Of a stretch of DNA of 64,000 bases, positions 39,080-48,165 are shown in pieces. Both the position numbers and the translations under genes were made by a program. Every line of letters starts with the position of its first letter. Position 1 is the stretch's first letter. The stretch spans positions 1,054,001-1,118,000 of the forward strand of contig NC_008530.1 in assembly GCF_000014425.1 (NCBI RefSeq). The letters run 5' to 3'. The notes under the pieces are model-generated. The model was not told where the DNA came from, did not search any database, and saw only the letters and a list, made by a program, of their open reading frames with translations. The DNA is from Lactobacillus gasseri ATCC 33323 = JCM 1131 (GTDB lineage Bacteria; Bacillota; Bacilli; Lactobacillales; Lactobacillaceae).

Positions 39080-39616
39080 CTACTTTAAATTGATTAATTC
39101 AATACTATCAACACCATCAATTTCACTGACATTAACTGACACTTGCTCATTAAGTGAAGTTGGAATATTTTTACCAACAAAATCAGCTTTGATCGGTAAT
39201 TCTCGATGTCCCCGATCGACTAAAACCGCTACAGAAATCGACTTTGGTCGTCCATTTGCAATCAGGGCATCCATCGCTGCCCTAATTGTACGACCAGTAT
39301 AGAGAACATCGTCTACTAAAACAACATTTTTATTAGTAATATCTAGATCCATCGGCTCTAAATCAGGTATTTTTTCTTGACTAAAATCTTTTTTTCGATC
39401 ATCCCGATAAGGCGTAATATCTAATTCACCTACTGGAACATCTACTTTTTCGACTTCTTTCAGCCTATCACGCATTCTACGAGCTAAATATACTCCGCGC
39501 GTCTTAATACCAACTAAGACTAGATCTTCTACTCCCTTATTTCTTTCAATAATTTCATACGTAATTCTGACAAGAGCTCGCTTCATTGCAAGCTTGTCCC
39601 AAATTTCTTTTGTCAT
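39080..39616 (-). CDS. pyrR: PyrR paralogue at the end of the pyr operon
   Basis: A 178-residue PyrR-type protein: an RNA-binding attenuator with a uracil phosphoribosyltransferase fold. The PRPP site [21 protein letters not shown] is intact, as are [10 protein letters not shown] and DRGHRELPI. It follows carB by 26 bases and is the last gene of the minus-strand pyr transcript. It is clearly paralogous to the PyrR at 46290-46832 (same length, most motifs identical), so the cluster has one copy at each end. No hairpin of its own separates it from carB. Confidence 0.9.
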
Positions 39617-46289: not shown

Positions 46290-46832
46290 CTATTTTGGTA
46301 ATGACTTCAATTCAACTGAATCCCTACCGTCTTTTTCTACCATGTTAACAGCAACTTGTTCGTCAGCTGCTGTTGGAATGTTTTTACCAACAAAATCAGC
46401 ACGAATCGGCAATTCTCGATGTCCACGATCTACCAAAACTGCAACTTTAATTGAACTAGGGCGTCCATCATCCATTAAAGCGTCCATTGCTGCTCGAATT
46501 GTACGACCAGTATAGATTACGTCATCAATTAAGATAACCTTCTTATCGTTAATATCAACGCTTATTTTATTGGAATTAATTACTGGATCTTGCTTCAATG
46601 AAGCATCATGACGATCATCACGATAAAGAGTGATGTCTAGTTCATCAACTGGCACATCAACGTCTTCTAATTTTTGAATACGATCATGAATTCTCTTAGC
46701 TAGGTAAACACCACGAGTTTTGATACCGATCAAAACCAGATTATCTGTTCCTTTATTTTGTTCAATAATTTCATAAGTAATTCGAGTTAGTGCACGCTTC
46801 ATTGCTAATGCATCCCAAATTTCCTTTGCCAT
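46290..46832 (-). CDS. pyrR: PyrR, pyrimidine operon attenuation regulator
   Basis: A 180-residue PyrR: UMP-dependent RNA-binding regulator with weak uracil phosphoribosyltransferase activity. [21 protein letters not shown] is the PRPP motif; [12 protein letters not shown] and [22 protein letters not shown] the other family marks. It is the first gene of the pyrR-pyrB-pyrC-carA-carB unit, with its own PyrR hairpin and terminator upstream, so it is autoregulated. Second copy at 39080-39616. Ribosome binding site AGGAGGG. Confidence 0.92.
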
Positions 46833-46856
46833 CTTTTACCCTCCTGGTCTTGCCCA

Positions 46857-46942
46857 TGAAAAAAGCTCCTAGTGTCAGAGACTAGGAGCTTATAGTAAAG
46901 TCATACTTATTTAAGCCTGCCTTGCTAGCCTCACGGGACTAA
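46857..46942 (-). promoter_or_regulatory. PyrR-dependent attenuator before pyrR
   Basis: On the minus strand TAGTC-CCGTGA-GGCTA (plus 46926-46941) is the PyrR binding hairpin with hexaloop CCGTGA (CNGNGA), followed by GCAAGG; then a terminator AGCTCCTAGT/ACTAGGAGCT (46864-46873 with 46881-46890) and a run of six T. Confidence 0.8.
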
Positions 46943-46966
46943 TTTTAAAGGACATTCATTGCTTTA

Positions 46967-47000: not shown

Positions 47001-47924
47001 TTAATTAAATTCAACTTGATTGACCAAGTCATTAATGTCTTCAATACCTAATTTTTCTAATTCATTAGGCAATTCATCAGCAATATGCTTTGACGCAATA
47101 CTGTCTTTAAAATGAGCTGTTCCAACCGCAACAGCATTAGCACCAGCAAGCATGAATTTGATTACGTCTTGAGCTGAACTAATTCCGCCCATTCCAATAA
47201 TCGGCAAACTTGTACTTTGACGAACTTGGTGAACCATTCTAAGCGCAACTGGCTTGACTGCTTCTCCAGAAAGACCGCCAATATTGTGGCCTAAAACAGG
47301 TTTTCTTGTTTTAATATCAATATCCATCCCTAAAAGAGTATTAATTAAGGACAAACCATCTGCACCGCCTTTTTCAGCAGCTTTAGAAATTTGTGTAATA
47401 TCAGTCACATTTGGAGTTAACTTCACATAAATGGGAACATTAGTCACTGCCTTAATTTTCTTAGTTAAAGATTCAACTACATCTGGATGAACACCAAAAC
47501 TCATTCCGCCTTGGTTTACGTTAGGACAAGAAACATTAATTTCTAAAGCATTAACTAAACCTGAATCAGATAATTTTTTAGCTACTTCAACATAACCTGC
47601 TTCATCTTCGCCACCAACGCTAGCCATGATTGGCAAATCAGGATAACTCTGACGTAAAGGTTTTAACTTATCTTCAATTACCGCATCAACTCCAGGATTT
47701 GTTAATCCAACTGAATTTAAAACTCCGGTCTCTAAAACAGCTATTTGCGGCTGAGGATTACCTGTTGTTGCATGCGGAGTAGTAGTCTTAATAACCATTG
47801 CTCCAAGATCATTTAAATCAAACTTCTTAGCTGCTGGCACATCTCCAAAACCAAAAGTTCCACTTGCTGGCATAACTGGATTCTTTAAATCTAATCCCGG
47901 TAATTTTACATGCGTATTAATCAT
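47001..47924 (-). CDS. pyrD: Dihydroorotate dehydrogenase, class 1B-like catalytic subunit
   Basis: A 307-residue FMN enzyme oxidising dihydroorotate to orotate. [33 protein letters not shown] and the active-site [13 protein letters not shown] (Cys133) place it in class 1, closest to 1B by its GTFGFG/SCPN pattern; class 1B enzymes normally need the iron-sulfur partner PyrK, which is absent here. ATG 47922-47924 follows GGAGG; an in-frame TTG four codons earlier overlaps that site. It has its own promoter and a PyrR-type hairpin touching the ribosome binding site. Confidence 0.88.
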
Positions 47925-47939
47925 ATTTTCCTCCAAAAT

Positions 47940-47957
47940 GAATGCTCACGGTCATTC
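47940..47957 (-). promoter_or_regulatory. PyrR-type hairpin at the pyrD ribosome binding site
   Basis: On the minus strand GAATG-A-CCGTGA-G-CATTC: a 5-bp stem with the hexaloop CCGTGA, the same loop as the pyrR attenuator and matching CNGNGA. It ends four bases before the Shine-Dalgarno TTGGAGG of pyrD and no terminator lies between. Binding of PyrR here would block initiation. PyrR binding is inferred from loop identity and gene context. Confidence 0.6.
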
Positions 47958-47976
47958 GATTATTTTTCAAGAACTG

Positions 47977-48004
47977 ATTGTACACGCTTTTTTATTTTTT
48001 TCAA
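47977..48004 (-). promoter_or_regulatory. pyrD promoter
   Basis: Minus-strand TTGAAA (47999-48004) and TACAAT (47977-47982) with 16 bases between; it leaves a short leader of about 45 bases carrying only the hairpin above. Confidence 0.55.
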
Positions 48005-48069: not shown

Positions 48070-48165
48070 CGGTACAGAGAGACCGCAAGTTAAAAATTAT
48101 TGGCTTAAATTATCTGGGAAAGTCTATACCTAGTGTCTCTCTGCGCTCGGTGTAGACTTTTTTTA
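48070..48165 (+). promoter_or_regulatory. PyrR-dependent attenuator before pyrFE
   Basis: CGGT-A-CAGAGA-G-ACCG (48070-48085) is the binding hairpin with hexaloop CAGAGA. The terminator is AGTCTATACC (48121-48130) with GGTGTAGACT (48149-48158) followed by TTTTTTT. CAGAGAGAC (48075-48083) is the exact complement of GTCTCTCTG (48135-48143) in the terminator loop, which gives the alternative antiterminator pairing. Confidence 0.8.

What the first reader, a model, noticed from the sequence alone, without database searches (positions are those of the whole stretch)
47940..47957. PyrR-type hairpin on the pyrD ribosome binding site, without a terminator
Seen: on the minus strand GAATG-A-CCGTGA-G-CATTC ends four bases before the Shine-Dalgarno of pyrD. 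Its hexaloop CCGTGA is the one in the pyrR attenuator (46926-46941), and its A/G closing pair mirrors the pyrF hairpin (A-CAGAGA-G). Known: PyrR binds a CNGNGA hexaloop; in Bacillus it works by attenuation, while mycobacterial PyrR blocks translation at a similar hairpin. Inference: one PyrR system in this genome uses attenuation for pyrR, pyrB and pyrF and translational repression for pyrD.
Basis: partly seen in the sequence, partly recalled or inferred. Interest (0 to 1): 0.75.

Follow-up and report, generated by a model that had tools for sequence, protein, structure and literature searches.

The report
PyrR-type RNA switch blocking ribosome site
In front of a pyrimidine-making gene of a Lactobacillus sits a tiny RNA hairpin that looks like the docking site of the pyrimidine sensor PyrR, placed so that a bound PyrR would block the ribosome; the same switch occurs widely in lactic acid bacteria, mostly in front of an unstudied transporter that probably imports orotate.

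Summary
The hairpin is real (47940-47957, minus) but is the top of a 37-nt element (47931-47967): short A/U lower stem, purine-rich 5' bulge, 5-bp upper stem and CNGNGA hexaloop, ending on the Shine-Dalgarno. A promoter-like site just upstream leaves no room for an attenuator. The element precedes pyrD in 48 of 56 Lactobacillus leaders read. Its upper stem covaries strongly (90% of cells paired, 79% in shuffles). A covariance model finds it in 136 of 251 family genomes (30 of 38 genera, E up to 0.1) and in four further families of the order. Of 76 hit stretches checked, 69 precede one MFS transporter and 7 pyrD. That transporter is divergent from pyrF in 51 of 126 genomes read and sometimes in an operon with pyrD, so it is probably an orotate importer. 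Transporter leaders carry the element in 88 of 89 genomes with PyrR and 0 of 7 without a good one, though these seven are only two lineages. Best reading: PyrR-UMP clamps the hairpin and blocks translation, as reported for mycobacteria, beside attenuators on pyrR, pyrB and pyrF. PyrR binding, repression and the substrate are inferred. The window leader alone folds weakly.

The parts
47940..47957 (-). upper stem (5 bp), A.G closing position and CCGTGA hexaloop
   Evidence: sequence; conserved in 48 of 56 genus pyrD leaders
47931..47967 (-). whole element: lower A/U stem, purine-rich 5' bulge, upper stem, loop, up to the Shine-Dalgarno
   Evidence: covariance model R1, 53.5 bits, E 4.1e-8, full scan of the window; the window leader is one of the 50 training rows
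47930..47934 (-). Shine-Dalgarno GGAGG of pyrD, 5 nt after the upper stem
   Evidence: sequence
47977..48004 (-). promoter-like site TTGAAA-16-TACAAT; implies a leader of roughly 45 nt
   Evidence: consensus scan, 10 of 12; 3 sites found in the region against 7.1 in shuffles, so weak alone; a -10-like hexamer ends 15-20 nt before the upper stem in 47 of 48 genus leaders
47001..47924 (-). pyrD, dihydroorotate dehydrogenase class 1
   Evidence: NCBIfam NF005574, 415.7 bits, cut-off 269
46856..46955 (-). PyrR attenuator of pyrR
   Evidence: RF00515, 59.1 bits
46159..46267 (-). PyrR attenuator of pyrB, below Rfam's cut-off
   Evidence: RF00515, 46.4 bits; terminator-like site; pyrB by NF002032
48058..48166 (+). 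PyrR attenuator of pyrF, weak Rfam match
   Evidence: RF00515, 24.2 bits, E 3; terminator-like site
46290..46832 (-). PyrR, first copy
   Evidence: NF003548, 284.5 bits, cut-off 218
39080..39616 (-). PyrR, second copy, behind carB
   Evidence: NF003548, 280.9 bits
48176..49523 (+). pyrF and pyrE, divergent from pyrD
   Evidence: NF001273, 287.3 bits, cut-off 193; TIGR00336, 149.1 bits, cut-off 106.8

Best explanation
The element is a minimal PyrR operator acting on translation. It starts within a few nucleotides of the predicted 5' end of the mRNA. When UMP is plentiful, PyrR-UMP binds the CNGNGA loop, upper stem and purine-rich bulge, holds an otherwise weak hairpin closed, and covers the Shine-Dalgarno that abuts it, so pyrD is not translated. 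When UMP is low the hairpin opens and ribosomes load. The same operator controls an MFS transporter, probably an orotate importer, which is its main target in the order. The pyrD copy in the window probably arose when the transporter was lost from an older hairpin-transporter-pyrD operon. Shown: the conserved structure, its covariation, its place, its targets and its absence in two lineages without a good PyrR. Inferred: PyrR binding, the direction of control, translation as the step, the substrate orotate, and the origin of the pyrD copy.
For: Covariation: 90.4% of cells paired against 79.0% shuffled, 57 cells changed on both sides against 12.8, covariation score 0.395 against 0.162 (each 0 of 500 shuffles as high); sliding partners destroys it; RNAalifold finds the 5-bp stem unprompted; on all 82 distinct segments 87.6% against 72.2%. 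Targets: of 43 exact pattern matches in 84,980 genomes 18 precede pyrD, 23 the MFS gene, 2 neither; of 76 model-hit stretches 69 MFS, 7 pyrD; outside the family 24 of 24 precede the MFS gene. pyrD leaders with unrelated stems in two other genera (5 g17, 1 g18 of 110 leaders). PyrR: 88 of 89 transporter leaders with PyrR, 0 of 7 without a good one. Transporter beside pyr genes. The same loop type stands with a terminator before an NCS1-permease-like gene in G182. Stem end to SD 5-7 nt in 48 of 48 pyrD leaders and 3-7 nt in 87 of 87 transporter leaders.
Against: The window leader alone folds no better than shuffles (-4.6 kcal/mol, z 0.34, 130 of 200 as good). The count of pairs with any change on both sides (6) is reached by 107 of 500 shuffles, and the shuffles ignore relatedness. 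15 of 50 rows have A.G, not a standard pair, at the closing position. The lower stem hardly varies; swapping flanks lowers pairing in the whole set (0 of 500 as high) but not within genus pyrD leaders (39 of 500). 8 of 56 genus pyrD leaders, and 104 of 110 in other genera, lack it at the start codon. G099 has PyrR but no element on its closer transporter copy. Absence of PyrR is two lineages (g10, g29), not seven events. No binding or expression data.
Confidence: 0.77

Rival explanations
1. PyrR binds the hairpin but acts on mRNA stability or transcription (pausing, early termination) rather than on ribosome loading.
For: The element sits near the predicted 5' end of the mRNA, where a bound protein can change decay. 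PyrR elsewhere acts on transcription, and a relative of this loop stands before a terminator in G182.
Against: No terminator-like site between hairpin and pyrD. Distance from stem end to Shine-Dalgarno is held at 5-7 nt in 48 of 48 pyrD leaders and 3-7 nt in 87 of 87 transporter leaders, which a link to translation initiation explains most simply.
Confidence: 0.12
2. Another RNA-binding protein, or the ribosome itself, reads the hairpin; the likeness of the loop to PyrR sites is incidental.
For: The closing position is A.G or U.G in 63 of 87 transporter leaders, unlike the C-G of the Rfam consensus; the lower stem is weak; no binding data exist.
Against: Same hexaloop, purine-rich 5' bulge and kind of target as PyrR sites; pyrF, a likely attenuator, has the same A.G closing; C-G, U-A, A-U and G.U closings also occur; absent where PyrR is absent.
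Confidence: 0.08
3. The two PyrR proteins are divided: the second PyrR (39080-39616) reads this operator and the first reads the attenuators.
For: Genus members with only the second type (G012, G017, G061, G067) keep the element on the transporter.
Against: All 48 genus pyrD leaders with the element lie in genomes that also have the first type, while 5 of the 8 without it do not; most family genomes listed have a single PyrR.
Confidence: 0.2

Closest known systems
PyrR binding site and attenuator of Bacillus type (Rfam RF00515)
   Same: CNGNGA hexaloop, short upper stem, purine-rich 5' bulge, lower stem; [quoted passage not shown]
   Different: no antiterminator or terminator; only 37 nt; abuts the Shine-Dalgarno; RF00515 does not report the site even at E up to 10
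PyrR-dependent translational repression in Mycobacterium smegmatis (Fields and Switzer 2007)
   Same: PyrR site near the start codon, block of translation (content recalled; only the title was seen, in reference lists; the paper itself is not held)
   Different: other phylum; there the pyr operon (recalled), here pyrD and an MFS transporter; attenuator-like leaders coexist in the same genome
PyrR1 and PyrR2 of Lactobacillus plantarum
   Same: two PyrR proteins on one pathway; PMC3582564 (passages seen) says that they answer to pyrimidines and to inorganic carbon
   Different: the passages seen speak of the pyr operon, not of a translational site
Orotate transporter OroP of Lactococcus (recalled)
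   Same: predicted substrate
   Different: OroP belongs to another transporter family (recalled); the gene here is MFS, best NCBIfam match TIGR00895 aromatic acid/H+ symport, 239.1 bits, below its cut-off of 418.55

Membership tests
RF00515 PyrR attenuator | matches the covariance model at its cut-off | tested here: not met
   no match at 47931-47967 even at E up to 10; in 20 stretches that hold the element, the 7 gathering-level Rfam matches all lie elsewhere
RF00515 PyrR attenuator | intrinsic terminator downstream of the loop | tested here: not met
   none between hairpin and pyrD
PyrR binding loop (as a kind of RNA site) | CNGNGA hexaloop on a paired upper stem | tested here: met
   exception: a five-base loop in 4 stretches of genus g83
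PyrR binding loop (as a kind of RNA site) | purine-rich internal bulge on the 5' side and lower stem | tested here: inconclusive
   AATAA stands 5' of the upper stem in 81 of 82 segments and in 39 of 39 pyrD rows; lower stem nearly invariant, so covariation cannot test it well
PyrR binding loop (as a kind of RNA site) | binds PyrR, better with UMP | not testable with these tools
   co-occurrence only
PyrR translational operator (mycobacterial kind) | site overlaps or abuts the ribosome-binding site of a pyr gene | tested here: met
   stem end to SD 5-7 nt in 48 of 48 genus pyrD leaders that have the hairpin
PyrR translational operator (mycobacterial kind) | translation repressed by pyrimidines through PyrR | not testable with these tools
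   no expression data in hand

The most novel reading that the evidence does not exclude
Lactic acid bacteria share an order-wide 37-nt PyrR operator on translation that I found in no paper searched. Its main and oldest target is an unrecognised MFS orotate importer beside pyrF-pyrE; pyrD gained the operator in Lactobacillus when the importer was lost from a hairpin-importer-pyrD operon. PyrR thus uses attenuation for synthesis genes and translation for orotate supply (import or pyrD) in one cell.
Probability: 0.6. Interest if true: 0.8.

Novelty: new variant of a known kind. Interest (0 to 1): 0.7.

Why it matters
It would make translational repression by PyrR, known to me only from mycobacteria, a common mode in lactic acid bacteria, beside attenuation by the same kind of protein. 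It also names a candidate orotate importer, a function of interest in milk fermentation, through its regulation and its neighbours rather than by sequence likeness. The element is so short and so regular that the step from attenuator to translational block can be tested with small reporter constructs, and RF00515, the Rfam model for PyrR sites, does not report it.

Tried and rejected
Rfam at gathering and at E up to 10 did not report the site, nor at gathering level in 20 relatives. A search for the loop motif alone was useless. Attenuation at pyrD was set aside for want of a terminator and of room. A first alignment of genus leaders put the lower stem out of register between species with 3, 4 and 5-nt bulges, so I used loop-anchored segments. 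That alignment holds 50 of the 82 distinct segments: 39 of 54 transporter and 11 of 28 pyrD segments. Left out were near-duplicates, the pyrD rows with a bulged upper stem (TGTAATG group) and some irregular transporter rows (L266, L267, L277, L279, L305), which flatters the pairing; genera g17 and g18 were not in the 82. A recount on all 82 gave 87.6% paired against 72.2% in shuffles, largest 75.2. The flank-swap test of the lower stem was not significant within genus pyrD leaders. Ten paper searches listed no title or abstract that reports a PyrR site on this MFS gene or a translational PyrR site in lactobacilli; the library lacks most subscription journals, and RegPrecise was not available, so I claim no more than that.

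Full report
What is there. On the minus strand the leader of pyrD reads AAAAATAATC-GAATG-A-CCGTGA-G-CATTC-ATTTT-GGAGG-AAAAT-ATG. A promoter-like TTGAAA-16-TACAAT ends at 47977, which puts the start of the mRNA near 47970, so the leader is about 45 nt (inference). Three other leaders in this cluster look like PyrR attenuators: pyrR (RF00515, 59.1 bits, above the cut-off of 54), pyrB (46.4 bits) and pyrF (24.2 bits, E 3), each with a terminator-like site. Two PyrR genes lie in the window. The window belongs to the genus Lactobacillus; its pyrD is 97% identical to that of G033 and 89% to that of G022, whose contig length equals that of a Lactobacillus johnsonii record.

Conservation at pyrD. pyrD was found in 57 of 75 genomes of the genus. 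56 leaders were read, from 55 genomes, one with two copies; two partial genes (G011, G017) gave none. 48 of 56 have the hairpin: 47 by pattern and one, L058, by eye with a C-G closing pair; one search counts the same 48. Eight lack it: L043, L044, L051 and L053 to L057. In two of these (G036, G067) pyrD is the second gene behind an MFS gene whose leader carries the hairpin, and G012 and G061 carry it on an MFS gene elsewhere. In other genera 6 of 110 pyrD leaders have a hairpin with at least 4 pairs beyond the closing position in the last 60 nt, against a shuffled mean of 0.33 and a largest value of 3 in 200 rounds. Five are of one genus (g17) and have stems unlike those of Lactobacillus, for example CTAAT-AAAA-TTGTC-CAGTGA-GACAA-ATTAG-GAG and CTAATA-AAA-ACAGC-CTGAGA-GCTGT-TATTAG-GAG, where the lower stem takes in the first G of the Shine-Dalgarno; the sixth is of g18. 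In five others a CNGNGA hairpin lies 100 to 380 nt upstream (L094, L095, L098, L123, L131), with a terminator-like stem and T run visible by eye in L094 and L095. Many of the rest seem to lie inside operons, which I did not check.

A second target. An exact pattern of stem, loop and following T run, scanned over 84,980 genomes, gave 43 stretches. By the downstream gene, 18 are pyrD, 23 are one MFS transporter of about 410 residues, and 2 (a Clostridium and a Ligilactobacillus contig) are neither (the cut genes of L176 and L197 were assigned by eye). The named hits include Lactobacillus, Furfurilactobacillus, Bombilactobacillus, Apilactobacillus, Secundilactobacillus, Lapidilactobacillus and Philodulcilactobacillus. 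The transporter matches in 151 of 251 family genomes at E up to 1e-80 and in 33 of 75 of the genus, ten genomes being in both lists. I read leaders of 91 of these genomes (51; 40): the best-scoring ones and a hand-picked spread of genera, not a random draw. 87 have the hairpin by rule; G081 has a shorter one that the model scores at 45.2 bits; G083, G119 and G099 lack it. The window's own genome has the element at C1:550213-550249, before a transporter gene split between two frames.

Structure. 50 loop-anchored leaders align without gaps. In the six upper-stem positions, the closing one included, pair types such as GC, UA, AU and CG replace one another; 90.4% of cells of the whole structure pair against 79.0% in shuffles, 57 cells differ on both sides against 12.8, and sliding the partner by one to three columns drops pairing to 25-46%. 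One of the five measures, the number of pairs with any two-sided change, is not above shuffles (6 against 4.8; 107 of 500). RNAalifold finds the same 5-bp stem without being told. The 50 rows are a choice from 82; on all 82 the upper stem pairs in 87.6% of cells against 72.2% in shuffles (largest 75.2), with 72 two-sided changes against 14.3. Across 87 transporter leaders the closing position is A.G in 35, U.G in 28, C-G in 20, U-A in 2, A-U in 1 and G.U in 1. The lower stem is less certain: it is nearly invariant A/U. Swapping 3' flanks among all 115 distinct leaders lowers the mean pairing from 5.44 to 4.95 (0 of 500 as high), likewise for 76 transporter leaders, but not within the 33 genus pyrD leaders (39 of 500). 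In some pyrD leaders it is long and reaches the GG of the Shine-Dalgarno (L025: CCAAAAAAT with ATTTTTTGG, -11.8 kcal/mol, z -2.5), whereas the window leader alone folds at -4.6 kcal/mol, z 0.34. I read this as a hairpin that needs its protein.

Regulon. Model R1 found 136 of 251 family genomes positive at E up to 0.1, in 30 of 38 genera; many of its hits are training rows. Of 345 genomes of the order, 58 were positive at E up to 0.01, 23 of them in four other families. All 24 stretches from those 23 genomes precede the same transporter (in G356 the gene is broken). Of 76 hit stretches classified by BLAST (30 best family hits, 22 of the order search, 24 outside the family) 69 precede the transporter and 7 pyrD. 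I fetched 13 weaker or unplaced hits: 9 precede the transporter or its remains (in G218 a broken gene), 3 precede a class 1A pyrD in genus g21 (NF002702, 459.2 bits, cut-off 301), and 1, in G182, precedes an NCS1-permease-like gene and a cytosine-deaminase-like gene, both below curated cut-offs, the second cut by the end of the stretch. In the g21 case read in full (L349) the stem ends about 85 nt before the start codon. In G182 a strong terminator follows the loop, which joins this loop type to attenuation. Hits that one search did not list were not examined.

PyrR. In the family 244 of 251 genomes have a PyrR match. Transporter leaders from genomes with PyrR carry the element in 88 of 89 cases; the exception, G099, has a second transporter copy with an attenuator-like leader (the terminator was seen by eye, its loop being too long for the scan). 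Leaders from genomes without PyrR (G119 and five of genus g29) or with only a remote match (G083, E 4.8e-32) carry it in 0 of 7. These transporters still sit beside pyrF and pyrE (g10) or pyrE and a class 1A-like pyrD (g29), though the g29 proteins are only 38-39% identical. This is two lineages, not seven independent losses. In the genus, all 48 pyrD leaders with the element are in genomes with the first PyrR type; of the 8 without it, 5 lack that type.

Transporter function. In 51 of 126 genomes whose transporter stretch I read, mostly with 1.5 kb on each side, pyrF is divergent from it; 7 more have another pyr-related neighbour; in the remaining 68 no such neighbour was seen in the stretch (the 51 include G277, with a pyrBCDF operon 3.5 kb start to start, and the two g10 genomes). 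In G036 and G067 the order is pyrE-pyrF, divergent, hairpin-transporter-pyrD; G017 has the same order with an incomplete pyrD match. The best NCBIfam match is aromatic acid/H+ symport, below its cut-off. Orotate, an aromatic acid made by PyrD and used by PyrE, is the natural guess; dihydroorotate or other precursors remain possible. In the window pyrD with its hairpin lies divergent from pyrF-pyrE where other genera have the transporter, and the stretch from promoter to SD of the two genes can be aligned. Hence the inference that pyrD took over the leader when the transporter was lost from between them.

Comparison and verdict. It would work like the PyrR-dependent translational repression described for Mycobacterium smegmatis (title seen in reference lists of PMC6455119 and PMC13328217; content recalled). 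It is not a member of RF00515 as modelled. PMC3766115 (passages seen) surveyed 15 Lactobacillaceae with Rfam motifs including RF00515, a model that does not report this site here. I call it a new variant of a known kind. PyrR binding, repression and the substrate await experiment.

Noticed in passing
39080-39616 and 46290-46832: Two PyrR genes in one pyr cluster, one close behind carB, one behind an attenuator downstream of pyrD.
   Followed up: partly
L350 (G182), 165-300: The AATAA-type PyrR loop followed by a strong terminator before an NCS1-permease-like gene and a cytosine-deaminase-like gene: the same loop used for attenuation.
   Followed up: partly
L397, L403, L406, L407 at 1501-1536: In four genomes of genus g83 the loop is five bases long (CGAGA) instead of CNGNGA, with stem and place kept.
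   Followed up: no
L347, L348, L349 (genus g21): The element stands before a class 1A pyrD, in L349 about 85 nt from the start codon and without an abutting Shine-Dalgarno; how it acts there is unclear.
   Followed up: no
L315 (G099): A second transporter copy has a CNGNGA hairpin farther upstream and, by eye, a terminator-like stem in place of the SD-abutting element (not flagged by the scan, whose loop limit is 8).
   Followed up: partly
48075-48083 and 48135-48143: In the pyrF leader CAGAGAGAC of the PyrR loop is the reverse complement of GTCTCTCTG near the terminator, a possible antiterminator pairing.
   Followed up: no
G000:C1:550213-551487 (outside the window): The window genome keeps the transporter with its element, but the reading frame is split in two.
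   Followed up: no
L363 (G131): Two tandem transporter copies, each with its own element.
   Followed up: no
L222, L236, L253: A TPP riboswitch lies just behind the transporter gene in three genomes; probably the next gene's, not studied.
   Followed up: no
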